DNA of 64,000 nucleotides from Cymodocea nodosa (Eukaryota > Streptophyta > Magnoliopsida > Alismatales > Cymodoceaceae). Each line of letters starts with the position of its first letter. Within the stretch, counting starts at the first letter, position 1. The stretch spans positions 4,179,501 to 4,243,500 of the forward strand of contig CM072345.1 of assembly GCA_036874045.1 (NCBI GenBank), in the 5' to 3' direction. Of the stretch, positions 17,026 to 63,060 are shown one piece after another. The notes below the pieces were generated by a model. The model had not been told where the DNA came from. It did not search any database and saw only the letters and a program-made list of their open reading frames with translations. Made by a program: the position numbers and the translations under genes.

Positions 17026-18733
17026 TGTTTGGGGTTGTTAAGTTAATTCTTAAACTTGTTTAATTTGTCTTTATGCTTATATCAATAATTACTTTTAGAA
17101 GTAAACAAACAACCTCTCACACAAATTAGATATTAATTTCAATTTGTATTTTTACTGCAAGTGCACAATGTATATTGTATTTGTATGCAAGTACAAGTCG
17201 ATCCCACAAAGATTGAGTAAGAATTGTGTATTATTCCGATTTTTATATTGGAGTTTATATGCGTTTAGTTAAGCACTTCATTGAGTTACAGTTAACACAA
17301 CGGACTTAATTCATGGAGTTATGGCTAACTCAACGAACTGACCTTGTGGACTTAAGTTAACTCCACGAGTCTATCTTTCCAATTAAATACTATTATTTAC
17401 AGGGGAATTCGGTCAACCATTGGGTGGTTCCACAAAATGTAAATAACATCAATTAAGCTTTTTAATGTTAGTTAATATTAGATTTATCATTAAGCAACGC
17501 TAACATTTAGATATTTCAAACAGTAACCATTTAAATCTTTAAGTATCTAGAATGAATCAATTTTAGTAAACAATAAAACTATTTTCTATTTTCTGAATCA
17601 AACAAACATAAAACATTCATAATACTAACAATGATAACATTAATCCCAATATGAAACAAACAATACAACACTTTAATGCTAAATGTAAACACAGATAATT
17701 TGTTGTTTTTGGTATTTTTGTTTTGATATGTTCCTGAAGATGAGCGAAAGGTGAAATGTAAAAATCTCTATCGACAATAAAAACTTCTATCACTACATGT
17801 AACGCAATTACACCACTGAAAACTTAATCACTTACAATCTTGCCTCCTCTCCTTATAGAATCACGAATCCAAAATTGTAAGATGATCTCCTCTTCAGCAT
17901 ATTGGCATCAACCCAAAACCAAAGCAAAAAGTTTTACAATCTCTTGAGATATGAGTCGATGCTTGGTGAAAATGGCTTCCCTTCCTACAAAGCGATCACT
18001 CCTCATAGTGATTGTCAGTCTCTGTGTTTGGCTCGAAATCGACCCGACATCAGGAAAGTATCTTCACAGACCTCCAATGGTTGGTGATTTTGGTGGTGGT
18101 TTGGAGCTTCAGGGAACTTTCGACGCTTCCTGTAGTTAGTGCGGTTCTCCACTTTGCACACACACTTTCTTTGTCTTTCTCATCTTCTTTTATATTTCTT
18201 TCTATAGTAATGCTTCTGCTTAGATGATCAGTTGGATTTCCTTCATTCATATCAATGATGGTGATTTCTTCTTCATTCCTCAAGTAAATTCCTACATGAT
18301 GCATGTAATCGTGGTTTTCCTTTGAATGTCTTGTTTCTACAACTACTATAGTGGCATATTAGAAAATAAATGGTCCGTGGAGTTACAGATAACTTAATGG
18401 ACTTACTTTGTTGATTTAACTATAAAGCATGTGTACTTCAAGAAATAAAAAAATATTCTTTAAGCGTTTAAAGCATAACTATCTAGTACATGTAATATAA
18501 CTCTCCGAAATAATAGAAAATTCGGATACTTAAGAATTAAAATCCTGCAACTTACCGACAGTTCAAAAATGTACTTAATTAACGTTAATTCCTTGAAATT
18601 ATGTAAATTTCATCATTAAAGCATATAACAGTGCAATTATAACATAATGGCTTAATTCTCAGATGATAAGCTAAATATTATGCAATTAACCATCATTTAA
18701 CCGTTAATATTATGCACTTTTTCATTCTAAACA
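17026..18733 (-). repeat. Gy2 3' LTR
   Basis: Plus-strand ends TGTTTGGGG (17,026) and TCTAAACA (18,733); sense-strand ends are therefore TGTTTAGA...CCCCAAACA. It abuts a PPT on the right. It contains GAGTTA/TAACTC modules at about 17,280-17,380 and 18,370-18,420. Small open frames around 17,900-18,300 have no recognisable domain. Confidence 0.85.
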
Positions 18734-18750: not shown

Positions 18751-20365
18751 TTTTGCTAGTCCCTTAGTAAACTAAGATCTAACTAGTTGGTCTTTCTTAA
18801 GTTCTAGAATTAATTCTTCATTTCGTATCTTTAGAATACATAAATTAGATTACTATATATATATTCTGTATTTTTCAGTAATCTATTTTACATTGTTTTC
18901 TCCTCTTCAACCTGCAAATATATTTAAAACATATGTAAATTACATACAAAATATATTAGCATCACATAGGTGGTAATTATATTATCATTTTTTTTCTTTT
19001 TTTCTTTTTTTCAACATTTGTTATCCTAAATTTTCTAATATGATTTCCAGAATAAATTTCAACTACATACGAATCAAAACACAATCCAATTCAATATAAT
19101 TAAAACAAGTAGAATAATGAATTGTATCTCAAATAAACAACTTTAAAAGTCTATTCTAGATTCATACTTCAATAATCTTAGATAACAGAAAATATACTTG
19201 ATTCAAAAGATTTTTGTATTTCACAAAACACTTTTATCTTTTCAGAACAATATATGCATATTTGCACTTTAAAAGTTAATTTGAAAAACTTGAATCATAC
19301 AAGAGCTTTCTAGTATACCCATGTATCGAGCTTTCAGTCAACAATCTCAAATCTGATCAGGATCTTAGGTTGCCAGATTTAAAGAGTCATTTTTCAGGTC
19401 AACAATCCTTACATACCTATCTGCTCAAGTACAAAAGGCTCATGATCAAACAAGTCAATAAACTCTCAAAGTTTTTCTCTTTTTTTCCTTTTTTTCTTTT
19501 CAACACAGTATATATACGTATTTCATTAATACAGATGCAATAAAACATAAATCTCATATAGTCCTACTTCCATAATTTACTGAAAATTTAAATCTAAATC
19601 AATAAGCTCATACTTTTTCTGTAATTTAATAAGATTTACACATAAATCATTCTGCAAGTTTAATCACTCAAATTAAATGTATCCTTGATCATATGCATCT
19701 CATTTAATCCAAAAATAAACATTTCAGCTCTTTCAGAATTTCAAATAATTTACTGAATTTCAGTTAAGCATTTTGTTTTCTTTTTAAAATCGTGAAACTA
19801 TTAAACTCATAAAATTCAGTGAAAACATAAGATACTATATCCAAGTTTGTATTAATTGTAATATTTGTAGCATCTTATATAAGACTATAAATATAACATT
19901 CAAGCAACTACAGTTCTTAAAAATTTTACAGTTTCAATTAGTGGATAGTTACAGCAAATTCATAAAAAAAATTTTCAATTTCCACAGAACTTTGCAGCAC
20001 CATTCTAATTCCTCTAATTAACAAAATTACTTGGATTTTAACTTAATTACCTCCCCCCATACCAACATTTTGCATTATCCTCAATGTAAAAGATTTTACA
20101 GTAAATATAGTAATTGTTAGTAGGCATGAATATTGTTTTGTTGACTTAGCACCTAACTCAACGAACTTAATTCATTGAGTTAATGAATAACTCCATGAAC
20201 TGAGTTTAAATCTAAATTCAGGATAAGTAATCAATCACATATCTTGTTCTTTTGTATCTCCTTCAATATCTTTCGACTTTTGATTCTGAAAAACTTTTCA
20301 TTCACACATAAAAGCAGAATATATATAACAAAATAACATTTAATAACAAAACATAAATTGTTAAT
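18751..20365 (-). other. Gy2 3' UTR, left of the Gy1 insertion
   Basis: No coding frame. About 18,840-19,760 aligns (reverse complement) to Co1 4,100-5,000, for example around CTGATCAG, GATTGTTGACT and TATGAGCTTATTGA. Pyrimidine runs at about 18,988-19,010 and 19,475-19,500 read as purine runs on the element's sense strand. Confidence 0.6.
20361..20365. repeat. TSD of Gy1, left copy
   Basis: TTAAT immediately before the left LTR; an identical copy is at 31,298-31,302. Confidence 0.9.
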
Positions 20366-21901
20366 TGTTGAGCTATATTTTTAGCTCAAGCTTTACTGCA
20401 AGTGCATAGTTCTTTTGGTGTACATGGCAAATACAGGTCATTCTTCCACAAGGATTGTGTTTATGACTTAATCAACTATTACTCAACTTGTTCTTCAAGC
20501 TCTTAGGTATACTTCAGTAAATTAATGACATGTGAATGTAGAATAATCAAAGTTAACACAAGCTCACAAATCATGCAATTTCAAGGCAATTTGTAGTGGA
20601 AAATGGTGATGTGAATCAATTTCTTTACTTGTAAATCTATCAACTCATTCAATTATAACATGCACACAAGTTCCACGTGATTTCAGAAGTGATATCAATG
20701 CATCAATATTAAGGAAAGAAAAATAAAACAACAAGGTTCAATAGACTATACTACTCTATTCTAATTTATACTAAATGCATGCAACTATGCTATTTGCTAA
20801 TCTAGCTAAACTATACTATACTACTTGCATTAGAAATTCTTTTTGGAGATTGATTAGGACAAAATGTGATCTATATAAGATATAACAAAATCAATTAACT
20901 ACTGAAATTAAAATTAACAACTAGATATAAGTGATAGGTTCTTCATTCAAATGAACATCAACACTTATTTTCTTCTTCTTTCAATTCACACCTTCTTCTC
21001 AAATGCACCAAGCCACCATTGATGAGTGTCATTCACTCGTGTGAAAGCCTCACCAACAGCCCCAACAATACATGTGAATAGAGGATGCAAATTAGAAGTT
21101 GAAAAGAAGAATTAAACATTCATATACATTCATTGAACTCTATCTAGCTAAGAAGACATATAATTGAGATGTTCACTACCATTTCTCATCAATTCTTCCT
21201 TCTATACAAGAAAATAATAAACTCTAAGAGTTGTCACTACCTTAGGAGCTTCTTATCTTCTTCTCTAGAGCTTTGAATTCAATGGAACTTGGCAGCAAAT
21301 CCACCTCCAAGCTTGGACGTCTTCTCCTTAGCCCTTGGAATGGTGAATAGCATCAATGGATGGTCTCCTTGCAAGCATAAGCCTCACCTCCAAGCTTTCT
21401 TCTCTTCTTTCTTTCTCTCGTTGGAAGCACCAAGGTGTTGGCCGAAAATCCTCTCCCCTTGTATTTATGTTGTTTTGTCTTCTCTCTCTTTGATGTGGCA
21501 CCTTGGTTTTATCACCAAGCCAATAAGATGTCATAGATCTAGGAGGGCCAATAAGGTGTTGGCATGTCCTCTTCTTTAAAGTTTAGTCCACCAACTTTTG
21601 ATTCTTTACATCTTCTTTGGTCTTTTGCATTAAGCTCCTCCCATATATATGTTACCTACAATTAATGGAAGTTGAACTCCAAGAGACGTTAGCTAACATA
21701 GGACATGCAAAATAAATCAATGTGTTTCATGTAAAATTATATCCAATGGGGGATGCACTTGTTAATTAAATTTCTATATTGCACTATATTTCAAGACTTA
21801 TATTACCCATAATTAATATCATTTATCCATCATAGATATATAATATCATGCAAAATTACTTATAAAATTCATTAAAAATAGGCAAAATTAAAGCTTGAAC
21901 A
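20366..21901 (-). repeat. Gy1 3' LTR
   Basis: Plus-strand ends TGTTGAGCTA and AAGCTTGAACA. Nearly identical to 29,762-31,297. A TATA-like ATAAATAC lies on the minus strand near 21,458-21,465. The 96-codon frame at 21,289-21,579 is within the LTR and repeated in the other LTR; I do not call it a gene. Confidence 0.95.
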
Positions 21902-21917
21902 CCCCCCCACACTTAAA
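21902..21917 (-). other. Gy1 PPT
   Basis: On the minus strand AAGTTTAAGTGTGGGGGGG abuts the LTR start TGTTCAAGC, the expected plus-strand primer site. Confidence 0.88.
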
Positions 21918-23492
21918 CTTTGCTAGTCCTCTGGCAAAATTTAAGAAGAAAATATTAAGGAACCCCTTTTAAACAAACAAACACAATAAAGAAAATTAAG
22001 GCAAATTAAATTCTCACTAAGTAATGCAACAATACTTATATATAATCTCCACTCACAAGCTTAGTTCCTATAATGGTGAGGAATATAGAATAGATATCTA
22101 ATGCCAACCTAAGGAAAATAAGTTTTTAAAGATACTATTAAGTGCAAAGTGCTTAGACCCATAATCAATAGCATCTAGGTTCATCTCACTTAATCCAAGA
22201 ATACATGAAGGTTTCTTTAGGCTTCTATCCTCTAGTACATTGCCCCCTTTATTTTCAATTGAGTTTTTTTTTTTTTTTTATTCTATAAAAGTATTTTCTT
22301 TGTTCATTCTATAGAACTTCTTCTTCTTCTTCTTTTTCTTTTTCTTTTTTTTTTTTCTTTTTTTTTTTGAAACCTCTCTTTTCTCACATCCTACCACTAC
22401 CCTTAGGATACCTCCCATAAAGGGTTTACATGTGAAGACTAAGAGGTTACTTAGCCTCCGTCCCCAGCAACCTTATGAGAACAGGTATCAAACCTTATTC
22501 CCAAATTCATATATCTACCCTTCTCATGGGACAACCTATTGGAAAGATTTCCTAAGCCACTCCTCAAGATTCATGTCATAAGAAGAGTCCTCTAGATACC
22601 ACATGATTAAGAGTCTAGTGCAAGAATGTGTATATGTTATAAGTAAGAAACTATGGTTGGCATCTCAAATGCATATTCCTATCCTCACCTTAAAGATAAG
22701 CTCAGCTCTAAGTGTACGACATCATAAGGAAAGAACATTACTGAGGAAAATTCAACATGCCACAAAAAGAAATTAAGTTCAAATGAAAACAAAGCTAAAA
22801 CTAATAAAGAATTAATGATCTTAACCTTAAGAGCATACAATGGAGATTGAGTAGTATGCTAGTAAGGCTAAGATGCAATAATTCAAAATCAAAATTAAAC
22901 TAACAAAGCTATTTCCTAAAAAAAAATAAAATTGACATGCAAGTTCTTATCATGGATACACATAAAACATGGTGGCATGCAACATATAGAACGAATTTTC
23001 AAACTTACCACCAACCTGCTTGTGAAAGAAACTTACATTTGGAAAATTTTCAATTTCATTGCTGTAGTATGCATCCTAAAACATTTTTTTACTTTCTCCT
23101 CCCCCCCGCACTTAGTTCCTGCATTGTCCTCAATGTAGAAAGGATTGTTTCAACAATAAGAATAAGTAAAAAAAAATGTTAGTGCATACCTGTTGTGCAC
23201 TGCTCTTCAAGTGGTGTAGATAAAATGTATTTAACTCTAATTATGGTTGAACATCAATTTGTCAAACAAACACATGATATCATGATAAAGTCTTTCAACC
23301 CATTCTACACCCTTCAAGTATTTGAAAATCATGCATCTAACTACTTTCAAATATATCATCAAATTCTGTTCTTTAAAATTAAACATGTCAAGCATGAAAT
23401 AAAATAAGTCTCTTATCAAATAAGCCAAGCATAAGTTGTGGAGATAAAAGGTTGCCTCTAGCTATCTTGTTGATTGCAAGTGATTCTTCTCT
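21918..23492 (-). other. Gy1 3' UTR
   Basis: No gene between the gag stop and the PPT. On the sense strand there are A- and GA-rich tracts (plus-strand T runs at 22,266-22,283 and TTC/CTTT repeats at 22,315-22,370) and a C/G run at about 23,100. A second TTTAAG/GGGGG-like block is at about 23,098-23,115 (plus CTCCTCCCCCCCGCACTTAG), perhaps a duplicated PPT-like motif. Confidence 0.55.
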
Positions 23493-24821
23493 TTACTTTT
23501 CTCCTGAAGTTGTCTCCACTTGGTTGACACGTGGATTTGTGATAGCTTGGCTTGGAATGGTTCCTTTCTCCCTCTCGCAAAGCCTTGCTGATATTTGGGA
23601 TAGTTGTGCCTCTATCTTGCTGATTGATTGTGCATTAGCATGCACAATTGGTTGATACTTAGCATTGTTTATGGCAAATGCTTCCATGCCTTTGATCAAG
23701 CTGTCCATCTTCTTTCCCATGTCTTCTATTGCTGCTGAATGATCATTTTTCTTAGCCAATTCCATAGTATTTCGTGTAGGTTGATTGCCTTGAAAATTTA
23801 AGGATTCACCATGTTGATTATCTTGAAAATGTGAGTTTCTCCATGAAAAGTTTGGGTGGTTCCTCCAAGATGGGTTGTAGGAGTTGCCATAAACTTCTTG
23901 CCTTTGATTGTTCCTTGTGTATATTTCCTGAACATCAGTAGAAGGGTTAGCCAACATAGGACATTCATTCACAATATGGCCTACCATATTACATCCCAAG
24001 CACTTGAGTGGTTCTTTCCCTTTTCCTTCTATTGCTTCAACCCTTTTCAATAGGCTTCCATATTTCATTTCAAGGGCTGTGGTTGTATTTATGGAATGAA
24101 TGCCCTTCTCTTGCCTTGTTTCAGATCTTGGAGAGGATTTCTCCCAACTTAATGTCTTTGCCGCCAACTCTCCCAAGAAGTTCCATGCCACTATGTCTTC
24201 AAGATTTGCAAAGTCTCCTTGCACCATGGATTCCAGCAAGCCCTTTACTAATGTAGGGATTCCATCATACACGATTTGGCATTGTCTCCACAAGGGTATC
24301 CCATGATGTGGACACCTCACAAGCAATTCATTGAACTTGCTAAAGAAATTAGCAAATGATTCTTCTGGCATTTGATAGCAAGAATTAATAACCTTTCTCA
24401 TCTCATTTGTTTTGGCAATTGGATAGAATCTTTTCAAAAAGATGGCACTAAATTGCTCCCATGAAGTAATAGAGTTGGGTGGTAAACTTTGAAGCCACCT
24501 TCTTGCTTGGTCTCTCAAGGCAAAGGGAACAAATCTCAATAGGATGGAATCATCTGTCAGATTTTGTATCTTCATTAAGTTGCATACATCTTCAAATTCT
24601 TCAAGGAAGCCATAAGCATCTTCATCATCGTGTCCCATGAACTTTGGTAATTGGCTGATGTAGTGGGATTTCAACTCAAAATGTGCTCCATTCTCATCTG
24701 GTAGTTGAATGCAAGTGATCCTACTTCTCTGTGTAGGATAGAACATGTCCTTGAGCACCACCCTCCTCTCATTATTATTTGCTGCCATGTGTGTTTCTTT
24801 TTGATTCTCTATGCGTATCAA
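23493..24821 (-). CDS. gag: Gy1 gag (capsid and nucleocapsid), located 3' of pol
   Basis: Open frame of 442 residues. Residues about 45-230 form a Retrotrans_gag-type capsid domain (FVPFALRDQARRWLQSLPP, SWEQFSAIFLKRFYP, RCPHHGIP), typical of Athila-lineage elements. A CCHC zinc knuckle CLGCNMVGHIVNEC lies at about residues 275-290, followed by an Asn/Gln-rich tail with a WRNHPNFSWRN repeat. It would assemble virus-like particles and bind the RNA. It starts 342 bases after the integrase stop and cannot come from the usual gag-pol fusion; how it is translated is unknown. I chose the first ATG; a second in-frame ATG (MAANNNER) lies 11 codons in. It is the longest unbroken structural gene here. 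Confidence 0.9.
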   Translation of the reverse strand: MIRIENQKETHMAANNNERRVVLKDMFYPTQRSRITCIQLPDENGAHFELKSHYISQLPKFMGHDDEDAYGFLEEFEDVCNLMKIQNLTDDSILLRFVPFALRDQARRWLQSLPPNSITSWEQFSAIFLKRFYPIAKTNEMRKVINSCYQMPEESFANFFSKFNELLVRCPHHGIPLWRQCQIVYDGIPTLVKGLLESMVQGDFANLEDIVAWNFLGELAAKTLSWEKSSPRSETRQEKGIHSINTTTALEMKYGSLLKRVEAIEGKGKEPLKCLGCNMVGHIVNECPMLANPSTDVQEIYTRNNQRQEVYGNSYNPSWRNHPNFSWRNSHFQDNQHGESLNFQGNQPTRNTMELAKKNDHSAAIEDMGKKMDSLIKGMEAFAINNAKYQPIVHANAQSISKIEAQLSQISARLCEREKGTIPSQAITNPRVNQVETTSGEK

Positions 24822-25163
24822 CCTGTTATCTGCGCCTCTCTCCTAACTTTTCATGCACTAAGACATTCACATCAGTTATGTAATTCAAGAGTATATGCAA
24901 GAGTTATTTACATGGTGAAATATCATCAAAGTATACAAGTACCATCATATATCATAAAATTTCAGCATGAATGGTTCACCATATAAATTCAAGATGACAT
25001 GAAACAACAAGGATAGATGCATGATAATAAGCATATAAAATTTTGACGTGAACTTGCAATAATAAATTTTATTGTTAACTACTAACACACTAATACATAG
25101 AATGAAAAATTACTAAGAATTAAGAAAAGAAAAACTACATCTACAACTAAATGCATACAAACA
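24822..25163 (-). other. spacer between Gy1 integrase and gag
   Basis: No frame. On the sense strand a pyrimidine tract ending in TTCTTAG (plus 25,108-25,125) resembles a 3' splice site, which would bring gag close to a spliced leader. No convincing TATA box is seen. Confidence 0.35.
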
Positions 25164-28100
25164 CTAATTATAATTGGGTTCCAACAACAAAGCACTCTCT
25201 CCATGATTGTAGGTTTTTCCAGGATAATATTCTTCAAGTCTTTGACCATTCACTACAGTTTTAAATCCTGTCTTACAATTTTCTATAGCTATAGCTCCAT
25301 GATTATATATATGTTTAATGATGAATGGTCCTGTCCATCTAGTCTTAAATTTTCCAGGGAACAAACGTAATCTAGAGTTATATAATAAAACTTCTTGTCC
25401 CTCATGAAAGTCCTTTCTCAAAATTTTCTTGTCATGGAATGCTTTTGCTCGTTCTTTTGCAATTTTTGCATTTTCATAAGCCTCTCTTCTTATTTCTTCC
25501 AGCTCATTGAGTTGATATTTTCTTGCTTTTCCTGCATCATCAACACACATGTTAAATGTTCTAATAGCCCATTCTGCTTTATGTTCTATTTCTATAGGTA
25601 AATGACATGCTTTCCCATAAACTACTCTAAATGGTGACATTCCCAACACAATTTTATGGGCAGTCCTATAACCCCAAAGTGCATCATTAAGCTTTTCTAC
25701 CCAATCCTTCTTACTTGGTTTGATTACTTTTTCGAGCATGTGCTTGATTTGTCTATTGGATACCTCAACTTGCCCACTTGTTTGAGGGTGATATGGTGTT
25801 GCTAACTTGTGAGTAACCCCATACTTCCTCAAAGCCATTTGAAATACTCTGTTGCAAAAGTGAGGTCTATTATCACTAATTATAGCTCTTGGAATACCAA
25901 ATCTAGCAAAAATGTTAGATCTAAGAAAATCAACAACAACTTTAGCATCATTTCTCTTAGTTGGGATAGCTTCAATCCATTTAGAAACATAATCAACGGC
26001 CAACAAAATATAAGAATAACCAAAAGAAATGGGAAATGGCCCCATGAAATCAATGCCCTAAACATCAAAAATTTCAACTTCAATGATAGGATTCAAAGGC
26101 ATCATATTTCGTTTGGAAATTTTTCCCATTCTTTGGCATCTATCACAATGTCTACAATGATCTTTAGAGTCTTTAATTAGAGAAGGCCAATAAAATCCAC
26201 ATTCAAGAATTTTCAAAGAAGTTTTTCTATGGCTAAGATGACCTCCACAAGCATGATTATGACAAAAATTTAAGACATTAGCAATTTCATCTTCAGGAAG
26301 ACATCTTCTTAAAATTTGATTAGAACCCATTTTATACAAATAAGGTTCCATCCAAACATAATGTTTAGCCATGTACCTCAATCTTTTCTTATCTGGTTTA
26401 GATAAATCAATTGGTATTAACCCTGTAGCAAGATAGTTAGCAATGTCTGCAAACCAAGGTAACTTACCAACTAGAAATAAACTCTCATCAGGAAACTTTT
26501 CATTAATTACATTATTGCATGCTGGAATATTTTCTAATCTAGAGAGGTGATCAGCAACTAAATTTTCTTTTCCAACCTTATCTTTAATTTCTATGTTGAA
26601 TTCTTGCAGCAATAAAACCCAACGAATTAATCTTGGTTTTGCATCTTTTTTACTCATCAAATGTTTAATAGCTGCATGATCAGTATGCACAATAACTTGA
26701 TTGCAAACTAAATATGGTCTAAATTTATCTAGAGCAAAAACAACAGCAAGAAATTCTTTTTCTGTGGTAGTATAATTTACTTGAGCTTCATTCAAAGTTT
26801 TACTAGCATAGCATATGACATGATGTTTCTTATCAATTATTTGCCCAAGTACTGCACCTACTGCATAATTGGAGGCATCACACATAATTTCAAAAGGATA
26901 ATCCCATATTGGGGCATGAATTATAGGAGGAGATATTAATGCATGCTTAAGTTGATTAAAGGCAGCAAGACAATGTTCATCAAAAACAAACTCAAAATCT
27001 TTTGCAAGTAAATTAGTTATAGGTCTTGCTATCTTGCTAAAATCATGAATAAATCTACGATAAAAACCAGCATGTCCTAAAAAGCTTCTAACCTCCTTAA
27101 CAGATTTAGGTGGCTGCAAATGAGATATAACGTCAATTTTTGCCTTATCCACCTCAATCCCTCTATTAGATATCACATGCCCAAGAACTATGCCTTCATT
27201 CACCATGAAATGGCACTTTTCCAAATTTAAAATAAAATTCTTTTCAACACATCTTTGCAAAACCATATCTAAATGATGTAAACAAATATCAAAATTTTTG
27301 CCAAAAATAGAAAAGTCATCCATGAAAATTTCTAAAAATTTTTCATTCATATCATAAAAAATTCATGCCATGCATCTTTGAAATGTTGCAGGCGCATTAC
27401 ATAAACCGAAAGGCATACGCCTAAAAGCATAGGTTCCGCTTGGATAAGTAAAAGTAGTCTTTTCTTGATCCTCAGAGATTATGGGTATTTGATTGTACCC
27501 AGAGTATCCATCAAGAAAACAATAAAATTCATGTCCAACTAACCTTTCTAGCATCTGATCAACAAATGGCAATGGGAAATGATCTTTACGAGTTGCAGAA
27601 TTCAATTTACGATAATCAATACATACCCTCCAACTAGTTTTTATTCTAGTAGGCACTAACTCATGATCTTGATTTTCAACTACTGTAAAGCCCGATTTCT
27701 TAGGTACTACATGCACAGGGCTTACCCACCTACTAGCACTAATAGGGTATATAATGCCACTGTCAAGCCATTTAACTATCTCCTTCTTTACCACCTCACT
27801 CATTTGGGGATTTAATCTACGTTGAGGTTCTCTAAAGGCATAGTTCTCATCTTCTAGGATAATTCTATGTTGAACTATAGTGGGACTAACTCCTACAATA
27901 TCACTCAATTGCCAACCAAGAGCTCTCTTGTTTTTACTTAATATCTTCATTAATTTTTCTTCTTGGTTTGGGGTTAAGTTTGCTCCAATTATAATAGGAT
28001 ATTCATTTTGCTTATCTATAAATGCATATTTCAGATTTTGTGGGAGTGCTTTTAATTTATTCATTTCCTTAACTTCTAAAATCAAGTCATTATTCATTTC

Positions 28101-29612
28101 ATGCTCACCACTATTCTCTTGTAACGATGCCTTGTGTTCTAGATTATCTTCAATGTCTAGAAAGCAAATTTCAGCACTAAGTTCTTCCTCATTACTACTA
28201 TTTTCGACTTCTTCAAATAATTCAGAAATGCTTACACTAATGTTGTCATCTACTTGATGGTTTATAGTCCTATCTCTTTTAAAAATGTTCAATGATATCA
28301 TCTTATTGTTAAAGGAGATTGACATTTTACCATTTCTGCAATTAATGTGGGCATTAATAGTTGCTAAGAATGGTCTCCCTAGGATCAATGTAGATTCATT
28401 TGGTTCACAAGTTGGTGCATTGGTTTCTAAAATGATAAAGTCGGCTGGGTATATAAAATCTTCAATTTGAATTAAGACATCTTCTACAATACCCATGGGA
28501 CTCCTATATGATCTATTAGCTAGTTTAATTAGTGTTCTAGTTTTCTTAATTCCTGTGATTCCCAATTGCTCATATAAGTGTTTTGGCATCACGTTAACTC
28601 CTGCACCAAGATCTAATAATGCTTTTTCAATTAAAACATTCCCTATTAAGCAAGTTATTAGAGGAACACCAGGATCATTGAATTTTTTAGCTAAACTATC
28701 AAGCAACATTGAACTACTTAACTCGGTTAAATAAACTTGCTTACTTAATTTTTTTCTTGGCTTCCTATGCTTGGTACAAAGGTTTTTAAGCACCCTCCCA
28801 TATGCTAGAATTTTTCTAATTAATTCTAACATAGGCATATTAACATTGATTTTCTCAAATATGGTTCTTATAGCTTCATTTTCCTCATTTTCTTTGTTGT
28901 TGTCAAGCCGACTAGGAAATGGTGGTTTGTTGTTCATATTTTCAGATGTTTCTTCTTTCTTTTTATCCATTTCTAAGTCTATAACAAGGTTTTCTTCAAT
29001 TAATTTTTCATTAGTTTCATCCATTAGACATTTTTCAAGTTCAACTCCTTCATGTTCTAGTTCTACATCCTTATGTTCATCTCTTATCAACATATTTTCT
29101 TCCTTTTCATCTACGTTTTCTTCACTTTTTTTTTCTTCACTTTCATGTTCTAATATGTTTCTTTCTATGGTTTTTCCAGATCTTAAGATTAAATTCACGT
29201 TTTTATCTACATTAGAGTCTTCTTCATCATCTATGACAATTACATCTTCTTTTTGTTGTAGGAGCTTAGTGGCAACATAATAGCTATCTCCTAACTCTAT
29301 GATTCTCTCTATATTCCTCATGGACTCTTCTATAGAACTACTACTAACATGAGAGCAATCACAAACATCATTTCTTTCATCAATATGAGATTTATGCATA
29401 TCAAAATCGTAATAAAATTCACTAGCATCATGCAAGACATCATATTCATCACTAACATGAGTTGTTTCTTCTACTGGTTGAATTTTTATATTAAATAACT
29501 TACTGGTACATATGCTTTCATCATGACCTTTTACATGGCAATAAGAACAAGCACTTTCAGATAAAAAATCATTTATAAACTTAAAAGGATCATCATGAAG
29601 AAAATTTGACAT
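25164..29612 (-). pseudogene. pol: Gy1 pol (CCHC-PR-RT-RNase H-INT), two in-frame stops
   Basis: Begins about 125 bases after the PBS. Near the N terminus is a CCHC knuckle CSYCHVKGHDESIC, then a Glu-rich linker with LRSGK, protease LLDLGAGVNVMP, RT (WVSPVHVVPKKSG, CIDYRKLN, CFLDGYSGYNQI, catalytic FMDD), RNase H ([44 protein letters not shown]), an integrase H-H-C-C finger (CHNHACGGH ... CRHCDRC), and the DDE core (GIDFMGPFP, SDNRPHF, GQVEVSNRQ) with a C-terminal domain. The motifs are Athila-like. TGA at 27,363-27,365 falls just before FMDD, and TAG at 26,058-26,060 replaces the Trp of DVWGIDF. The frame is otherwise continuous. The first in-frame ATG is 29,612; the frame is open 7 codons further upstream from a TTG. 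Confidence 0.92.
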
Positions 29613-29737
29613 ACTTGCAAGAAATTTAAGCAATAAAATTCACAACTAAGCACAAGAAAGATATGTTTATCAAAATTTGTCAAACAACCAACTAAGAACT
29701 TCAAATATGGTAAAAATAAACTAAGCCAAATTGCCAA

Positions 29738-29755
29738 TCCCCGACATCGGCGCCA
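29738..29755 (-). other. Gy1 PBS, tRNA-Asp type
   Basis: Minus-strand TGGCGCCGATGTCGGGGA lies 6 bases inside the 5' LTR. It differs at two positions from the complement of the plant tRNA-Asp 3' end as I remember it (TGGCGCCGTTGCCGGGGA), the primer of Athila elements. Confidence 0.85.
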
Positions 29756-29761
29756 AAAACT

Positions 29762-31297
29762 TGTTGAGCTATATTTTTAGCTCAAGCTTTATTGCAAGTA
29801 CATAGTTCTTTTGGTGTACATGGCAAATACAGGTCATTCTTCCACAAGGATTGTGTTTATGACTTAATCAACTATTACTCAACTTGTTCTTCAAGCTCTT
29901 AGGTATACTTCAGTAAATTAATGACATGTGAATGTAGAATAATCAAAGTTAACACAAGCTCACAAATCATGCAATTTCAAGGCAATTTGTAGTGGAAAAT
30001 GGTGATGTGAATCAATTTCTTTACTTGTAAATCTATCAACTCATTCAATTATAACATGCACACAAGTTCCACGTGATTTCAGAAGTGATATCAATGCATC
30101 AATATTAAGGAAAGAAAAATAAAACAACAAGGTTCAATAGACTATACTACTCTATTCTAATTTATACTAAATGCATGCAACTATGCTATTTGCTAATCTA
30201 GCTAAACTATACTATACTACTTGCATTAGAAATTCTTTTTGGAGATTGATTAGGACAAAATGTGATCTATATAAGATATAACAAAATCAATTAACTACTG
30301 AAATTAAAATTAACAACTAGATATAAGTGATAGGTTTTTCATTCAAATGAACATCAACACTTATTTTCTTCTTCTTTCAATTCACACCTTCTTCTCAAAT
30401 GCGCCAAGCCACCATTGATGAGTGTCATTCACTCGTGTGAAAGCCTCACCAACAGCCCCAACAATACATGTGAATAGAGGATGCAAATTAGAAGTTGAAA
30501 AGAAGAATTAAACATTCATATACATTCATTGAACTCTATCTAGCTAAGAAGACATATAATTGAGATGTTCACCACCATTTCTCATCAATTCTTCCTTCTA
30601 TACAAGAAAATAATAAACTCTAAGAGTTGTCACTACCTTAGGAGCTTCTTATCTTCTTCTCTAGAGCTTTGAATTCAATGGAACTTGGCAGCAAATCCAC
30701 CTCCAAGTTTGGACGTCTTCTCCTTAGCCCTTGGAATGGTGAATAGCATCAATGGATGGTCTCCTTGCAAGCATAAGCCTCACCTCCAAGCTTTCTTTTC
30801 TTCTTTCTTTCTCTCGTTGGAAGCACCAAGGTGTTGGCCGAAAATCCTCTCCCCTTGTATTTATGTTGTTTTGTCTTCTCTCTCTTTGATGTGGCACCTT
30901 GGTTTTATCACCAAGCCAATAAGATGCCATAGATCTAGGAGGGCCAATAAGGTGTTGGCATGTCCTCTTCTTTAAAGTTTAGTCCACCAACTTTTGATTC
31001 TTTACATCTTCTTTGGTCTTTTGCATTAAGCTCCTCCCATATATATGTTACCTACAATTAATGGAAGTTGAACTCCAAGAGACGTTAGCTAACATAGGAC
31101 ATGCAAAATAAATCAATGTGTTTCATGTAAAATTATATCCAATGGGGGATGCACTTGTTAATTAAATTTCTATATTTCACTATATTTCAAGACTTATATT
31201 ACCCATAATTAATATCATTTATCCATCATACATATATAATATCATGCAAAATTACTTATAAAATTCATTAAAAATGGGCAAAATTAAAGCTTGAACA
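29762..31297 (-). repeat. Gy1 5' LTR
   Basis: Same length and ends as 20,366-21,901; about 11 substitutions and no indel seen by eye. Confidence 0.95.
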
Positions 31298-31302
31298 TTA
31301 AT
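31298..31302. repeat. TSD of Gy1, right copy
   Basis: TTAAT, identical to 20,361-20,365. Gy2 sequence resumes here. Confidence 0.9.
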
Positions 31303-32879: not shown

Positions 32880-34225
32880 TTCAACTTCCCTCCTATAAGA
32901 GGTATCAATTTCATTAATAGTTCTGTTGACAGGGTTAGGTACTGCTTGCATTGGCAATCCTGCTGTAGGTCTAACTTCCATTGATTCCTTCTATCTAGGG
33001 GGTATATTTCTATTCATAATTTGATTTTGAGTAATAGCATTTCCAAATACAAGATCTAGACAATTGTTTAATTGTTGAATTATCTTTTCTAACTTCTCTA
33101 TTCTAGATTAATTGTTCAATTAATGCTTCATAACTTATATTTTTGTCATTTATATTTCTCCTCACTAGAAGTTGTTATTTCTCCAAGATAGATTCGGGTG
33201 ATTTCTCCAATTAGGCTTATAAGAGTTTCCAAAGTTGTCTTTCTAATTTCTAGCATAAATAATATCTAAGTCATTAACATTTGCATTCTTTTCTGCTAGT
33301 TTTTGATTTAATGATAACTCTTCTATTTTCTTTGTTAATTCAGTTAATTTAACTTCAAGCATAGTGCTTAAATCTATTTCATGCATTCCCCTTAGCAATA
33401 TTCTTTTATCTGTAATAGCTTCAGCTGAGTTTTCCCACTGTGTAGTTTTTTTTGCAAAGTTTTCTAAATATGCCCATGCTTCTTCACTACATAGTTTTAA
33501 AAATCCATTCTGACAAGTAGATTCTAATAGAGATTTTGTTGAAACATCTATGCCTTCATAAATTATACCTATTAATTGTGCTTTACTCATTGCATGATGT
33601 GGACATTAAGTTAGTAAATCTTTAAATCTTTCAAAATATTTCCAAAATGATTCTCCCTTTTTTGGCTACACATTAATATTTCCTTTTTCTTTTTAATCGT
33701 TTGATGTGTTGGACAATTTTTTTCCAAAAAAACAGAGCAAAATTCAGTGTATGCAGAAATTGAATCATGCGACAAAATATATAATCATCTCTTAGCTGTG
33801 TCTTTTAAAGCAAAAGGGATATATCTAAGTTTAATAGCATCAATACTCATGTTCAACATTTTCATCATTTGACAAACTTTGTTAAATTCTCTAAGGAAAT
33901 AATAAGCATCCTCTCTTTCTAATCCATGAAAGTGTGGCAATTGACTAATATAATTAGATTTCAGTTCAAACCTATCTCCCTCAAAGTTTGGCAATCAAAT
34001 ACATGAAGGTTCATCAACTAATTCAAGATACAGAATTTCCCCTAATGGTTTTTCTACTAGAGCAGTCATATCTTCGTTCTCTTTTAAAGAAAGGTTAGCT
34101 ACACCCCTAGGGATTTCATTAAAGTCCAATTCAAAAAATATTTCAGTACACCTCTATGTTAAATAATCCTATGTAGGTGTTCTTACTAATTGTTTAGTAC
34201 TAGGAGAATGAATCTATGTGCTCAT
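32880..34225 (-). pseudogene. gag: Gy2 gag, broken, lacks zinc knuckle
   Basis: Homologous to Gy1 gag: RFELKSNYISQLPHF and IPFALKDTAKR (33,785-33,994), then CPHHAMSKAQLIGIIYEGID and a coiled-coil-like LTELTKKIEELSLNQK (33,243-33,600), then the GNSYKPNWRNHPN tail near 33,190. In Gy1 a CCHC knuckle precedes that tail; here the equivalent stretch has no cysteines. Stops occur at about 33,985, 33,784 and 33,610, and more in the tail. Start taken at an ATG at 34,225, uncertain because early stops follow. It lies 3' of pol and of the envelope-position ORF, as in Gy3. Confidence 0.75.
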
Positions 34226-38149: not shown

Positions 38150-41100
38150 CTAAGTAAAGCTTGAGTAGTCTTCTACTCTTACTTCTTCTAAAATTCCAAA
38201 GGAACTTTTTGATATCTTCAAAATAGGTCTAAGTCTTTGTCCATTTACTTTAAATATATTCTGATTTTTAGGATTTTCAATTTCAATAGCTCCATAGGAA
38301 TAAATATTTTGAATTATGTAAGGTCCTGCCCATCTAAATCTTAATTTTCCTAGATGGTTATGGAGTCTAGTCATGTAAAGATATACTTTTTGTCCGATTT
38401 CAAAGGTTTTTGAAATAATTTTCTTATCATGCTAGAACTTCATTTTCTCTTTTTCTCTTACAGTCTTCGAATAAGCTTCATTCCTAAATTCTTCTAATTC
38501 AATCAATTGTATTTTCCTATTTTCAGCAACTTGATTTAAATTAGTGTTCAGAGTTTTTAATGCCCAATAAGCTTTATATTCAATTTCAGTTGGTAAATGA
38601 CAACTTTTTCCATATACTAGCCTAAAAGGTGGCATACCTAAGCTTGTCTTATAAGCAATTCTATAAGCCCAAAGTGCATCTATTAATCTATTAGCCCAAT
38701 CTTTTCAAGTAGAATTTACTACTTTTTCTAAGATTAACTTAATTAGTTTATTTGCATTTTCTACTTGTCCACTTGTTTGTAGATGACATGATGTTGCAAT
38801 CTTGTGATTTACTTCATATTTCTTCATTAAGGCTTCAAAACTTCTATTACAAAAATGAGTTCCTCTATCACTAGTAATAGCTTTAGGTATTCCAAATCTA
38901 GCAGTTATATTAGTTCCTATAAAATGTTTTACCACTTTGTTGTCATTAGTTTTTGTAGGAATAGCTTCTATCCATTTAGATACATAATCCACCCTAATAA
39001 TATATAATTAAATTGGTTAGACATAGGAAATGGACCCATAAAATCTATTCCCCACACATCAAAGATTTCAACCTCAACAATAGGATTGAGAGGCATCATA
39101 TTCCTCTTTGATATTCTTCCTATTTGTTGACATCTTAAACAACTTAAGCAGTATTTATGAACATCTTTGAATAGTGTTGGCCAATAAAATCCATAATGCA
39201 GAATTTTGGCAGTAGTTTTCCCTGAACCAAAATGCTCTCCACATGCTTGGTCATGGCAGAAAGACAATATGCTTTGATATTCAGTTTCTGGAACACACCT
39301 CCTTAAAACCAGATCAAGACATTTCTTAAATAAGTATGAGTCTTCCCAATAGTAATATTTTACTCTTGAAAAGAATAATTTCTTATCCTGTCTATTTCAA
39401 TCCTTAGGTGTTAAACTAATAACTAAGTAATTAACTATGTTTGCATACCAAGGTATTGTATTGATGGTCATTAATTGTTCATCAGGAAAATTATCCTTAA
39501 TTTCAATATTTGATTTTTCTATTTGTAATCTTAATAAATGATCTGCTACTACATTCTCACAACCTTTTTTATCTTTAATTTCTAGATCAAATTCTTGTAA
39601 TAATAATATCCATCGGATCAATCTAGGTTTAGTCTCTTTCTTTGCTATTAGATATTTTAAAGTTGAATGATCCGTGTATACTATCACTTTAGCTCCAATC
39701 AGATATGATCTAAACTTTTCTAAGGCAAACACAATAGCTAACAGCTCCTTTTCAATAGTTGTATAATTAACTTGAGCAACATTTAAAGTTTTGCTTACAT
39801 AATAAATCACTCTAGGAGATTTTTCTATCTTTTGTCCCAACACTGCTCCTACACCAAAGTCAGATCCATCGCACATTAATTCAAATGGATGACTCCAATC
39901 AAGTGCTTGCATTATAAGAGTTGAAATTAAGCTAGTTTTAAGCTTGAAAAATGCTTCTTTGCAATTTTTATCAAAGTTGAATGGGACATCTTTTAATAGA
40001 TTAGTTAAAGATCTAGCTATTTTGCTAAAATCTTTAATAAATCTTCTATAAAATCTAGCATGTCCTAGAAATGATCTAATATCTTTTATTGATTTAGGTT
40101 TTGGTAGATTAGAAATTACTTCTATTTTAGCTTTATCTACTTCCAATCCTTTCTTTGAAACAACATGTCCCAAGACTACTCCTTGTTTAATCATGAAGTG
40201 ACATTTTTCCCAATTTAGAACCAGACTTTTTTTTTCACAGCATTTTAATACTTGGTCTAAATTGTTTAAACACATTTCATATGAAGTTCCATAAACACAG
40301 TAAAATCATCTATAAATATTTCTAAAAATCTTTAGTCATTCCAATGAATATGCCCTGCATACACCTTTGAAAGTTGGCTAGTGCATTGCATAATTCAAAT
40401 GGTATTCCCTTAAAAGCATAAGTTTTATTAGGACATGTGAAAGTTGTTTTCTCTTGATCCTCTAATGCTACTGGTACTTGGTTGTATCCTGAATACCTTT
40501 CTAGGAAACAAAAATATTTTTGCCCTGTTAATTTTTCTAGCATTTGATCTATAAAAGGTAAGAGAAAATGATCTTTCCTAGTCATAACATTTAGCTTTCT
40601 ATAGTCTATACACACTCTCCAGCCTGATTGAATTCTAGTAGGTATCAAGTCATTACTTTTATTCCTAATTACTGTTAATCTTGATTTCTTGGGAACTACA
40701 TGGATTGGACTAACCCATGAGCTGTCAGAAATCGGATAAATTATGTCATTATCTAACCATTTCACTATTTCTTTCCTGACTACTTCTTTAAGGTTTGGAT
40801 TTAATCTCCTCTCAGGAATTCTAACTAGTTTAGCATTCTCTTCAAAATATATGTAGTGACAGCATAAAGTTGCACTTAACCCTTTTATATCAGTCATAAT
40901 CCATCCTATTGCTTCTTTATAAATTTTTACTACATCTTTTTATTTAGAAATTTGCTCCTCTTTTAAATCTGAAGCAATAATGATTGGACATATTCATTTT
41001 TCTTCCAGAAATATATAGGTTAATTTAGGAGGTAAAGGTTTTAAATCTAAATGTTGACCATCAGAAGCTAGAGCTCCTAATTGAACATTTTCATTTTCAA

Positions 41101-42830
41101 TATTAATCTCTTTTTAATCTCCTTCTATATTTATGCTTTCACTTACTTCTAAAGTTTCAGAATTTAGTTGCCTATTTAATTCTTCTTGAATCACATCATC
41201 TAGCATATCTCTTTCATCCTCTAAAAAGTCTATAGTATGTAAGGACATTTCTAACTCTTCAAACTTTTCTAGTTTGAAAATGTTTAATTAAGTATCCTCA
41301 TTACCATATGTTAACTTCATCACTCCAGTTTTACAATTTATAACAACCCCTAATGTTGCTAAGAATGGTCTTCTCAAAATTAAAGATGTATCATGATTTT
41401 GATGCTTAATTTGTTGGGAATCCAAAATCACAATATCAATAGAATATATGAAGTTTTTGATTTTAATTAGGACATTCTCTATTTTTCCTCTAAGGTATCT
41501 TATACTTCTATTAGCTAATTGAATAACAGTCCTAGTAGGAATTAAGTCTTCTAATCCTAAGGATGCAAATATATCACTCGGCATAACATTTATATCTACA
41601 CCAAGGTCTATTAAGGTTTTTTTTAGAATGGTATTTCCCATGGTGCATGATATAACAAGGATTCCAAGATCAGATAACTTTTTAGGAATTTGTGATAAAA
41701 ATAAGGAACTATTTTGCTCAACTAAAAAGACTTTCCTTAAAACTTTTTTCTCTCTTTTCTTAGTACACCAATCCTTAAGAAATTTAGCACAAGGTGGCAT
41801 TTTCTACGATAAGTCTAACAAAGGAATGTTAACTTGTACTTTTTCAAAAATTTCTCTAATTTTTTCTTGTTTTTCAGGAAATGTTTGTTGTAATATTTCA
41901 GGATAATGTGCTAATGGTTGTGATTTAAGAGATTCTTTGCCTTTAATTTCATTTGTTTGATCATTTTTAGTCTCATTTTCAAATTCAGATTTTTCTTTAG
42001 TGATTTCTACATTTTCATTATCATTTTGATTTTTGTTCTTATCCACCTTTATGTTATTTTTGTTTTGAATCCTTGGTGGTATATCAGTTCCAGATCTTAA
42101 CGTTATACATACATCTTCCAGATTTTCATTACTTTCATGATGTTCTTGTATTTCATTTTCGTGATTATGATCTTCAACTGTTTTTAGTTTTAAATTGTAT
42201 TCTTTAAATTCTATTGCATTGGTATTTTCTTTTGTTTGTGTAACTTACAAATTATGCACATCTGTAACATTATAGTTTTCATTTGTGTTTTCCTGTTGCA
42301 TAACTTGTAATTTCATTGTAAATTCGTCCAATGCTTTTAGTTTTCTTTCCAGATCATCTAATCTCATTACATTCAATTTTTGATCAATTTTCATTATGGT
42401 TTTTTCAGTTTCGTATATAATATCAATTTTAGGTTTTGTATATTCTTCCTTATAGTTTAATTGGTTGACTTCCTGTTGATGACACATATATTGTTCTAGT
42501 TTGTCCATGTATTGCTCTAAGCTATGCTCTAGTCTATCATACTTATCCCAAACTTTCGTGTCTCTCAACATATTACATATTCTAAACTGACCATCAGTTG
42601 GGTAAACTATAGGATTCTCATACTCAACTCTATTATATTGAATATAATTCATTTTTTGTTCATGTGATCTAACCATCTACAATCGTCTCAATTTCAAACA
42701 ATCAGAGATGTCATGACCTTTCAAATTGCAGAATTCACATATGCTAACTACAGGTTTCAGAAATCTTTGAGCATAAGCATATGTCATATTCTCAGTTATA
42801 AAATAAAACACACAACACTCCTCTATTATT
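38150..42830 (-). pseudogene. pol: Gy2 pol (CCHC-PR-RT-RNase H-INT), heavily broken
   Basis: Same domain order as Gy1: CCHC knuckle CEFCNLKGHDISDC near 42,700-42,740 soon after the PBS, a coiled and Glu/Asn-rich linker with LRSG, protease LIDLGVDINVMP (about 41,600), RT with WVSPIHVVPKKS, CIDYRKLN, CFLERYSGYNQV and FIDD at about 40,305, RNase H ([29 protein letters not shown]), integrase finger (CHDQACGEHF ... CLRCQQIG), core (GIDFMGPFP, SDRGTHF, GQVENANK) and C-terminal domain ending at 38,150. Stops lie near 42,677, 42,243, 41,802, 41,286 and elsewhere; frameshifts near 40,300, 38,990 and 38,700. There is no capsid domain between the PBS and the protease. Confidence 0.88.
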
Positions 42831-42867: not shown

Positions 42868-42885
42868 TCCTCGGCAACGGCACCA
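42868..42885 (-). other. Gy2 PBS, tRNA-Asp type
   Basis: Minus-strand TGGTGCCGTTGCCGAGGA, 6 bases from the LTR; two differences from the tRNA-Asp complement recalled above. Confidence 0.85.
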
Positions 42886-42891
42886 AAAACT

Positions 42892-43435
42892 TGTTTGGGG
42901 TTGTTAAGTTAATTCTTAAACTTGTTTAATTTGTCTTTATGCTTATATCAATAATTACTTTTAGAAGTAAACAAACAAACTTTCACACAAATTAGATATT
43001 AATTTCAATTTGTATTTTTACTACAAGTGCACAGTGTATATTGTATTTGTGTGCAAGTATTGGTTGATCTCATAAAGATTGAGTAAGCATTGTGTACTGT
43101 TCTGATTTTTATATTGGAGTTTATATGTGTTTAGTTAAGCACTTCGTTGAGTTACAGTTAACACAACGGACTTAGTTCGTGAAGTTATGGCTAACTCAAC
43201 CGACTGACCTCATAGACTTAAGTTAACTCCACGAGTCTATCTTTCCAGTTCAATACTACTATTTACAGAGGAATTCGGCCAACTATTGGGCGGTTCCACA
43301 GAATGTAAATAACATCAATTAAGCTTTTTAATGTTAGTTAATATTAGATTTATCATTAAGCAACACTAACATTTAGATATTCAAACAATAACCATTTAAA
43401 TCTTTAAGTATTTGGAATGAATCAATTTCAGTAAA
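42892..43435 (-). repeat. Gy2 5' LTR, truncated
   Basis: Matches 17,026-17,565, starting TGTTTGGGG, then stops at ATTTCAGTAAA where other sequence begins. About 1.15 kb of the LTR is missing to the right. Confidence 0.82.
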
Positions 43436-60920: not shown

Positions 60921-61653
60921 ATTTAAGTCATTTGTCCACTTGAACAGTGACAAAAGAGACAAGTTGGATTCAAAATCACAGAAGTGTTATTTCATTAGCT
61001 ATGGTAAGGATTATTTTGGTTACAGATTCTGAATAGAAGAAACCAAGAAAATAATCTGTGCAAAAGATGTCACCTTTATTAAATCCAAGATATACAAGCA
61101 TAGAGAAAGTACAAATGAATAGTAGTTAGAGCTTCAATTTGAAAGTACTACTAAGATCAATCTAGATAATGATATTGAACAACTTCAGAAGGAACCTGTA
61201 GAAGAAATTCAGCTTCTAGAAGCTGAACAATAAGAACATATAGATGATCAAGAAGATAAAGTTGTCACCAGACAACTTAGAATATCTGGAAGGGTTTTCA
61301 GACAACTAAAAAGGTATGTACCATCATTTAATTATCTATTGCTAACAGATGATGGTAAACCTGAAACATATCAAGAAGCAATCTATGCAAGTGATACACA
61401 TAAATGGGAGTTAGCAATGAAAAAAGAAATGAAATCCCTAGAGAAGAATAAAACTTGGGAGCTAACTTCATTACCAGAAGGAAAGAAAATCCTAGGAAAC
61501 AAGTGGGTGTTCAAGATGAAAGAACAACTAGATGGCAGCAAGAAATATAAAGCTAGAATTGTAGTCAAGGGTTTTCAGCAAATTCACGATATAGACTATA
61601 CTGAAGTATTCTCTCCAATTGTGAAGATGAATACTATAAGAATAGTCTTAAGG
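60921..61653 (+). pseudogene. Co4 second half: integrase C-terminus and RT start
   Basis: Resumes the Tork-like protein about where 48,439 stopped: NSDKRDKLDSKSQKCYFISYG, GYRF, then the linker and RT N terminus (TYQEAIYASDTHKWELAMKKEM, GNKWVFKMK, KARIVVKGF, NTIRIVL). TAG at about 61,123 and TAA at about 61,231 interrupt the linker. Cut at about 61,653, where gypsy integrase is fused in frame. Confidence 0.82.
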
Positions 61654-62830: not shown

Positions 62831-62937
62831 TAATCCTATCAATAGAACTATTAATGAAATTGATACCTCCTATGGGAGGGTAGCTGAATGAAATAGTATA
62901 ACTGAAGTAACTATGTATAATATAGTAAGTAGAAAAA

Positions 62938-63060
62938 TATAAAAAAGAAAAAAAAATGTAAGTTTAATTATAGTTAGTAGTATCATAGAGTTATTACTTA
63001 ACTCAACGAACTTAGTCCATTGAGTTATGACCTAAATCCACAAGGGTGTGAAGTAGCTAT
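62938..63060 (+). promoter_or_regulatory. candidate promoter of the Gy3 F-box ORF
   Basis: TATAAAAAAG at 62,938-62,947 is 174 nt before the ATG at 63,112; TAACTCAACGAACTT (62,999-63,013) follows. Matches the Gy2 arrangement at 32,657-32,829. Confidence 0.35.

What the first reader, a model, noticed from the sequence alone, without database searches (positions are those of the whole stretch)
20366..31297. Complete gypsy element with gag downstream of pol
Seen: matched 1,536-bp LTRs, TSD TTAAT, PBS beside pol, PPT beside gag, both ORFs on one strand. Pol starts about 125 bases from the PBS and contains no capsid; the capsid/CCHC gag begins 342 bases after integrase. Known: Ty3/gypsy elements, Athila included, are gag-PR-RT-RH-INT. 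A nested or tandem origin is excluded because LTR, PBS, PPT and TSD are all consistent with one insertion. I know of no described plant lineage with this order but cannot search.
Basis: partly seen in the sequence, partly recalled or inferred. Interest (0 to 1): 0.9.

Follow-up and report, generated by a model that had tools for sequence, protein, structure and literature searches.

The report
Retrotransposon lineage with pol before gag
A plant-type genome carries an old, recently active group of LTR retrotransposons whose enzyme gene (pol) comes before the capsid gene (gag), the reverse of the usual order, so they probably make and package their enzymes in another way.

Summary
In detail: the element at 20366-31297 (minus strand) has 1,536-bp LTRs, TSD TTAAT, PBS beside pol and PPT on the gag side; pol has no capsid and gag lies downstream. 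It is not a misassembly or a one-off. In this genome the integrase-gag junction matches at 97% or more in 40 of 40 scored places. Of 40 scored LTR-PBS-pol places, 12 have it 4.58-4.60 kb downstream, 17 have a gag-less junction, none has gag upstream on the same strand. Diverged families share the order: a second element in the window and 8 of 8 gag loci fetched without knowing their integrase. PR-RT and gag each form one clade. Downstream gag shows purifying selection. Pol starts with its own CCHC knuckle in 5 of 5 families examined. One locus with gag before pol has a junction seen nowhere else among 40 scored places. Nine literature searches found no report; a reference survey removed elements with unexpected domain order. 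Separate Pol packaging and a spliced gag RNA are inference.

The parts
20361..20365 (.). target site duplication TTAAT, left copy
   Evidence: both flanks read directly
20366..21901 (-). 3' LTR of element 1 (1,536 bp, TG..CA)
   Evidence: 11 mismatches to the other LTR
21902..21908 (-). polypurine tract (run of G on the minus strand), on the gag side
   Evidence: same kind of run in the other copies
21909..23492 (-). about 1.6 kb without an ORF of 120 aa between gag and the PPT
   Evidence: conserved in copies
23493..24854 (-). gag downstream of pol; family start codon at 24854 (this copy has a stop at codon 4; ORF listed from 24821)
   Evidence: (PF03732 E 3e-19)
24258..24533 (-). capsid-type (Retrotrans_gag) domain of gag
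   Evidence: residues 97-188 of the ORF
24855..25163 (-). integrase-gag spacer, T-rich, no LTR in it; a YAG 3 nt before the gag ATG
25164..29612 (-). pol (CCHC-PR-RT-RNase H-integrase), one frame with two in-frame stops
29508..29549 (-). CCHC zinc knuckle (CX2CX4HX4C) at the N-terminus of pol
29738..29755 (-). primer binding site (2 differences from the form common in other copies)
29762..31297 (-). 5' LTR of element 1
31298..31302 (.). target site duplication TTAAT, right copy
17026..18733 (-). 3' LTR assigned to element 2, an older pol-first element in which element 1 is nested
   Evidence: TG..CA; purine tract adjacent at 18734-18741; its first 548 bp match the 5' LTR remnant
33168..34045 (-). 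gag of element 2, frameshifted
38231..41875 (-). pol (PR-RT-RH-INT) of element 2, degenerate; CCHC knuckle upstream at 42698-42739
42868..42885 (-). PBS of element 2, about 0.1 kb upstream of its CCHC knuckle
42892..43435 (-). 5' LTR of element 2, truncated (92.7% over 548 bp to the 3' LTR)
61645..64000 (+). third, fragmentary copy of the element-2 family: part of integrase followed by part of gag and the 3' region

Best explanation
This is a member of a distinct lineage of Ty3/gypsy LTR retrotransposons, Athila-like in protease motif and PBS, in which gag came to lie behind pol, most simply once, before the families seen here diverged. SHOWN: the LTR-PBS-pol-gag-PPT-LTR order, its recurrence in many copies and several families, one clade each for pol and gag, purifying selection on the downstream gag, little-diverged LTR pairs, and a CCHC knuckle at the start of pol. 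INFERRED: the genomic RNA starts in the 5' LTR and Pol is translated first, free of Gag. Its own knuckle helps it bind the genomic RNA and so enter the particle, much as foamy-virus Pol, also made without Gag, needs genomic RNA for packaging. Gag, needed in excess, is made from its own start codon on a shorter RNA, most likely spliced from the leader to a site just upstream of the gag AUG. Priming from PBS and PPT and integration are as in any Ty3/gypsy element. Copies that lost gag are mobilised by Gag from complete copies. A possible origin is duplication of gag behind pol followed by loss of the capsid part of the first gag, leaving its knuckle on pol.
For: Structure. Copies: 40 of 40 scored integrase-gag junctions (the window's own included; 135 first-look candidates) at 97% or more. 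Eight gag-bearing copies fetched, picked because the two junction lists paired there, read LTR-PBS-pol-INT-gag, 6 of them on to the 3' LTR. Of 8 elements with both outer ends complete, 7 have an exact 5-bp TSD and one 4 of 5 bases. Other families: 8 of 8 gag loci fetched before any integrase position was known (L040, L041, L042-L047) have integrase upstream on the same strand; of 92 L040-type gag rows 50 have integrase upstream on the same strand (48 at 99-517 bp), 0 downstream on the same strand; element 2 in the window. Trees: PR-RT clade of 7 at SH-aLRT 99.1, bootstrap 100; gag clade of 14 at 100/92. Selection: gag dN/dS 0.05-0.32 in 14 of 15 computable pairs, 0.41 in the recent pair L040-L047; 6 of 21 pairs saturated. 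Knuckle: 5 of 5. Foamy-virus analogy: PMC3705302, passages.
Against: L049 has gag upstream of pol; it is the sister of element 2 in both trees, and no other of 40 scored places spans its junction (7,050 first-look candidates). 41 of 92 L040-type gag rows have no scored integrase within 8 kb, so the order there is unknown; 11 of 40 LTR-PBS-pol places pair with neither junction. Gag-less copies are numerous, so part of the lineage may depend on help. The window copy is broken. Most dN/dS pairs have dS above 1.5; only four have dS below 1 (0.20, 0.21, 0.32, 0.41); integrase of the recent pair gives 0.85. There is no transcript or protein evidence: a YAG lies 3-12 nt before the gag AUG at 5 of 8 loci, not at L040, L042 or L045, in T-rich DNA where such sites are common. 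A donor-like sequence at the pol AUG of element 1 is not seen at the pol start of L040 or L041.
Confidence: 0.8

Rival explanations
1. A single chimeric or rearranged element, or a misassembled contig: a normal gag-pol element whose parts were permuted at this site.
For: L049 shows that local rearrangements of gag and pol occur in this genome.
Against: The junctions recur in dozens of places and in diverged families that form one clade; exact TSDs on 7 of 8 complete-ended elements.
Confidence: 0.02
2. The ancestral order of these families is gag-pol, and pol-first elements arose several times by recombination between neighbouring or tandem copies.
For: L049 is a copy of the element-2 family with gag before pol; next to it lies an element-2-type copy with LTR and gag but no pol match (L051).
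Against: No LTR lies between integrase and gag (48 of 50 paired spacers are 99-517 bp); pol-first pols and gags each form one clade; no other scored place spans the L049 junction; pol of 5 of 5 families examined starts with the same kind of knuckle.
Confidence: 0.06
3. Pol-first elements are parasites: the working Gag comes from ordinary gag-pol elements, and the downstream gag-like ORF has another role.
For: A gag-less subfamily of element 1 exists: 208 first-look candidates, 40 of 40 scored span the gag-less junction, and 17 of 40 LTR-PBS-pol places pair with it against 12 with gag.
Against: The downstream ORF has a capsid-type domain, CCHC and a conserved start and shows purifying selection; none of the 39 best-scoring places of a gag-first relative in this genome reaches the capsid in frame, and only L049 has a separate capsid match (15,596 first-look candidates, so not exhaustive).
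Confidence: 0.12

Closest known systems
Athila-type Ty3/gypsy elements (Athila4, Calypso, Diaspora)
   Same: Protease motif DLGA, CX2CX4HX4C in gag, PBS a few bases inside the LTR (Diaspora: PBS complementary to tRNA-Asp, protease AMLDLGAS; PMC1142308, passages). A W.RD motif at the start of gag resembles that of P0002, a database gag that continues into the LRSG start of pol.
   Different: Diaspora has one gag-pol ORF; here pol is first and gag is a separate downstream ORF.
Ty3/gypsy lineages of the plant reference survey (PMC6317226, passages)
   Same: PROT-RT-RH-INT order within pol.
   Different: There the Ty3/gypsy order is GAG-PROT-RT-RH-INT; [quoted passage not shown]
Foamy viruses (PMC3705302, passages)
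   Same: Pol is made without Gag sequences and its packaging requires genomic RNA.
   Different: [quoted passage not shown] here the order is reversed and gag would be the spliced product (inferred).
Plant LTR elements with extra sense ORFs between pol and the 3' LTR (PMC7264820, passages)
   Same: A sense ORF between pol and the 3' LTR.
   Different: There the extra ORF is compared with env; here the downstream ORF is gag itself and there is no upstream capsid.
Bdelloid Juno elements (PMC5408684, passages)
   Same: An extra zinc knuckle in pol.
   Different: There the extra knuckle lies upstream of RT after a dUTPase domain, and a gag gene with its own knuckles is present.

Membership tests
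Ty3/gypsy LTR retrotransposon | LTRs with TG..CA, short TSD, PBS and PPT | tested here: met
Ty3/gypsy LTR retrotransposon | enzyme order PR-RT-RH-INT | tested here: met
Ty3/gypsy LTR retrotransposon | gag upstream of pol (usual order; PMC6317226) | tested here: not met
Athila lineage | protease motif DLGA, CCHC in gag, PBS as described for Diaspora | tested here: met
   features from PMC1142308 passages. That this PBS is complementary to tRNA-Asp is recalled, not tested on this genome
Athila lineage | RT clade with named Athila references | not tested
   the trees used database relatives without lineage names
Tat/Ogre/Retand | additional RNase H (aRH) | tested here: not met
   no second RNase H family reported on the pol pieces at E up to 0.1
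chromovirus | chromodomain on integrase | tested here: not met
   none reported on the integrase piece at E up to 0.1
foamy-virus-like expression | Pol and Gag made from separate RNAs, one of them spliced | not testable with these tools
   no RNA data; sequence context only

The most novel reading that the evidence does not exclude
A whole clade of plant LTR retroelements abandoned Gag-Pol fusion: Pol is the first ORF of the genomic RNA, carries its own nucleocapsid-type knuckle for RNA-mediated packaging, and Gag is made from a spliced subgenomic RNA. This would be a foamy-virus-like strategy reached independently by relocating gag, and filters on domain order would have kept it out of reference collections.
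Probability: 0.4. Interest if true: 0.88.

Novelty: new variant of a known kind. Interest (0 to 1): 0.8.

Why it matters
Gag before pol is the usual order in LTR retroelements, where it helps to set the excess of Gag and couples Pol to the particle by fusion (recalled). A successful, selected lineage with the reverse order shows that this rule can be broken, and gives natural material for asking how Pol is packaged without Gag and how the Gag:Pol ratio is set. In practice, pipelines that require the canonical order, or discard others as mispredictions (as stated in PMC6317226), would miss such elements, which are numerous in this genome.

Tried and rejected
Rejected: misassembly or one-off chimera; tandem arrays sharing an LTR (no LTR in the integrase-gag spacers). 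L049, first taken as possible evidence for a gag-first family, was tested and no other scored place spans its junction. An idea that L049 keeps 3' untranslated sequence was dropped, because its match ends inside the gag C-terminus. A donor-like sequence overlapping the pol AUG of element 1 was not seen at the pol start of L040 or L041 and is not used as evidence. LTR and PBS of L040 were not resolved. A scan of viral contigs with the gag alignment confirmed no relative. The host species was not identified. Supports printed after rerooting sit on the wrong nodes; those quoted are from the unrooted tree. Controls with gag-first relatives P0066 and P0001 on this genome did not complete.

Literature: nine answered searches of the held open-licence papers listed no report that I recognised of pol before gag in plant elements; most subscription papers are outside that library, and beyond the passages named I saw only titles and the starts of abstracts.
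Full report
OBSERVATION. The element lies on the minus strand at 20366-31297. Its LTRs (20366-21901 and 29762-31297) differ at 11 of 1,536 positions, begin TG and end CA, and are flanked by TTAAT on both sides. The PBS (29738-29755) is next to the 5' LTR and a run of G (21902-21908) next to the 3' LTR. Pol runs in one frame from the ATG at 29612 to 25164 with two in-frame stops, and its pieces match protease (weakly, E 0.0018), reverse transcriptase, RNase H and integrase families. Gag (PF03732, E 3e-19) follows it.

OTHER COPIES. The window lies in an unnamed assembly of 374.6 Mb in 28 contigs. First-look candidate numbers below are not copy numbers, and each DNA search scored 40 places. A 601-bp query across the integrase-gag junction gave 135 candidates; 40 of 40 scored places, the window's own included, match at 97% or more over at least 594 bases of the query. 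A query across LTR, PBS and start of pol gave 526 candidates and 40 of 40 scored places at 98% or more. Pairing these lists: 12 of the 40 LTR-PBS-pol places have the integrase-gag junction 4,582-4,600 bp downstream on the same strand; with the gag rows also 12 have gag downstream on the same strand, 2 have a gag on the opposite strand, 26 have none within 9 kb, and 0 have gag upstream on the same strand (83 of the 96 rows were used, the 13 dropped being 12 diverged ones at 37-42% and one 33-residue fragment). Of the same 40 places, 17 have the gag-less junction 4,504-4,583 bp downstream, none has both, 11 have neither. Ten copies were fetched: eight picked because the two junction lists paired there, and two with the shorter LTR spacing. 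The eight read LTR-PBS-pol-INT-gag; 6 of them go on to the 3' LTR, one is rearranged at its 3' end, one is partial; the two others lack gag. Of 8 elements with both outer ends complete (the window copy and the two gag-less ones included), 7 have an exact 5-bp TSD and one has 4 of 5 bases; LTR pairs of nine elements differ by 2 to 22 mismatches, gaps aside. At a recalled plant rate of 1.3e-8 per site per year the closest gag-bearing pairs (4 mismatches) are about 0.1 million years old. Of 46 gag hits covering at least 436 of 442 residues, 14 have no stop in the matched stretch (counted by hand).

GAG-LESS SUBFAMILY. A query across the junction left by the missing gag gave 208 candidates, with 40 of 40 scored spanning it at 97% or more. 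The two sides share a short similarity at the junction, as expected for a deletion by template switching (inference). Because gag lies after pol in other families too, the gag-less form is most simply derived.

OTHER FAMILIES. In the window an older element (element 2) has a PBS (42868-42885) and CCHC followed by pol (to 38231), then gag (34045-33168) on the same strand, then a 3' LTR assigned to 17026-18733; element 1 is nested in its 3' region. Its spacer of about 4 kb holds repeated and inverted arms, taken as a later insertion. L040 and L041, with gag about 37-40% identical to element 1, have pol then gag. Six further gag loci, chosen from the gag lists before any integrase position was known, have integrase upstream of gag on the same strand, 6 of 6. 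For the L040 type, 92 gag rows (a few rows are pieces of one locus) were paired with 143 integrase rows: 50 have integrase upstream on the same strand, 48 of them at 99-517 bp and two at 1,127 and 2,153 bp; none downstream on the same strand; 1 on the opposite strand; 41 without a scored integrase within 8 kb.

PHYLOGENY. Among database proteins, 42 of 42 that match both gag and PR-RT over at least 20% have gag first; a split pol-gag pair cannot show up in such single proteins. In an IQ-TREE of 47 PR-RT rows, a hand-picked part of 117, element 1, element 2, L040, L041, L048, L049 and database protein P0018 form one group (SH-aLRT 99.1, bootstrap 100). In an IQ-TREE of 43 gag rows (coverage above 55%), the ten pol-first gags, L049 and database proteins P0003, P0004 and P0138 form one group (100/92). 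FastTree gave the same two groups (0.999 and 0.997). Alignments were anchored on element 1 and low-coverage rows were dropped, which are limitations. P0018 is a pol ORF that begins without capsid, and P0004 is a gag ORF ending where the gags of element 1 and L040 end; both come from JGI-sourced contigs without an organism name, so a second host is likely but unproved.

FUNCTION. Between subfamilies gag dN/dS is 0.05-0.32 in 14 of 15 computable pairs and 0.41 in the recent pair L040-L047; 6 of 21 pairs are saturated, and only four pairs have dS below 1 (0.20, 0.21, 0.32, 0.41). For integrase it is 0.09-0.13 in 5 of 6 computable pairs and 0.85 in the recent pair. This indicates selection on gag in its downstream place. 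In 5 of 5 families examined (element 1, element 2, L040, L041 and the pol-only L048) a CX2CX4HX4C knuckle lies near the start of pol; the pattern occurs 4 times in the six frames of the whole window. A gag start motif of the form M..W.RD...RL(I/V)R was found in 9 of 10 stretches examined (element 1 and L022 being one family; not in L043), and resembles the start of database gag P0002.

COUNTER-EVIDENCE. L049 (element-2 family, 90% identical) has gag before pol. The stretch between is full of stops. An 801-bp query across the junction matches fully only at its own place: of the other 39 scored places 38 match only the gag side and one only the middle (7,050 candidates, best ones scored). I read it as a local rearrangement. 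Next to it an element-2-type copy on the other strand has LTR, then gag and 3' region without a pol match. L048 has pol but no gag match within the 10 kb fetched.

CANONICAL CONTROL. The gag-first relative P0020 gave 39 scored places in this genome; all start at query residue 436-575, so none reaches the capsid in frame, and only L049 had a separate capsid match. This suggests that gag-first close relatives are rare here, but 15,596 candidates were seen and only 39 scored. Further controls with P0066 and P0001 did not complete.

MECHANISM. Shown: order, recurrence, selection, knuckle. Inferred: Pol is the first ORF and is not a Gag-Pol fusion. [quoted passage not shown] the knuckle would serve RNA binding. 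Gag would come from a spliced RNA: nine spacers measured are T-rich (42-53%) with 3 to 16 ATGs, which disfavours simple reinitiation, and a YAG lies 3-12 nt before the gag ATG at 5 of 8 loci (element 1, L041, L044, L046, L047; not L040, L042, L045). This is weak evidence.

LITERATURE. PMC6317226 (passages) reports GAG-PROT-RT-RH-INT for Ty3/gypsy and removed elements with unexpected domain order. The passages shown of PMC7264820, PMC11963269, PMC1142308, PMC8775202, PMC12477816, PMC12440569 and PMC5408684 describe no such order. Nor did the nine searches listed under Tried and rejected.

VERDICT. A new variant of a known kind, well supported as a lineage; its expression and packaging remain open.

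Noticed in passing
17026-18733 to 42892-43435, minus strand: Element 1 is nested in the 3' region of an older pol-first element, whose integrase-gag spacer contains inverted arms near 34572-34740 and 37581-37751.
   Followed up: partly
L036, L037: A gag-less subfamily shares LTRs and pol with element 1; 208 first-look candidates, 40 of 40 scored span the junction.
   Followed up: partly
L048 (C17:65400-75300): A pol-only relative inside the pol-first clade with CCHC near the start of pol and no gag match in the 10 kb fetched.
   Followed up: partly
L051 about 3125-9501, + strand: An element-2-type copy with LTR, then gag and 3' region but no pol match.
   Followed up: no
34572-34740, 37581-37751, 43124-43239: Short repeated units occur both in the element-2 LTR and in its spacer.
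   Followed up: no
44934-45886, minus strand: Two ORFs that look like a copia-type gag with a CCHC knuckle (judged by eye, not searched).
   Followed up: no
8238-9893, 46087-47669, 49677-51430: A repeat of about 1.6-1.8 kb present three times in the window; the same repeat sits inside an element-2-type spacer next to L049.
   Followed up: no
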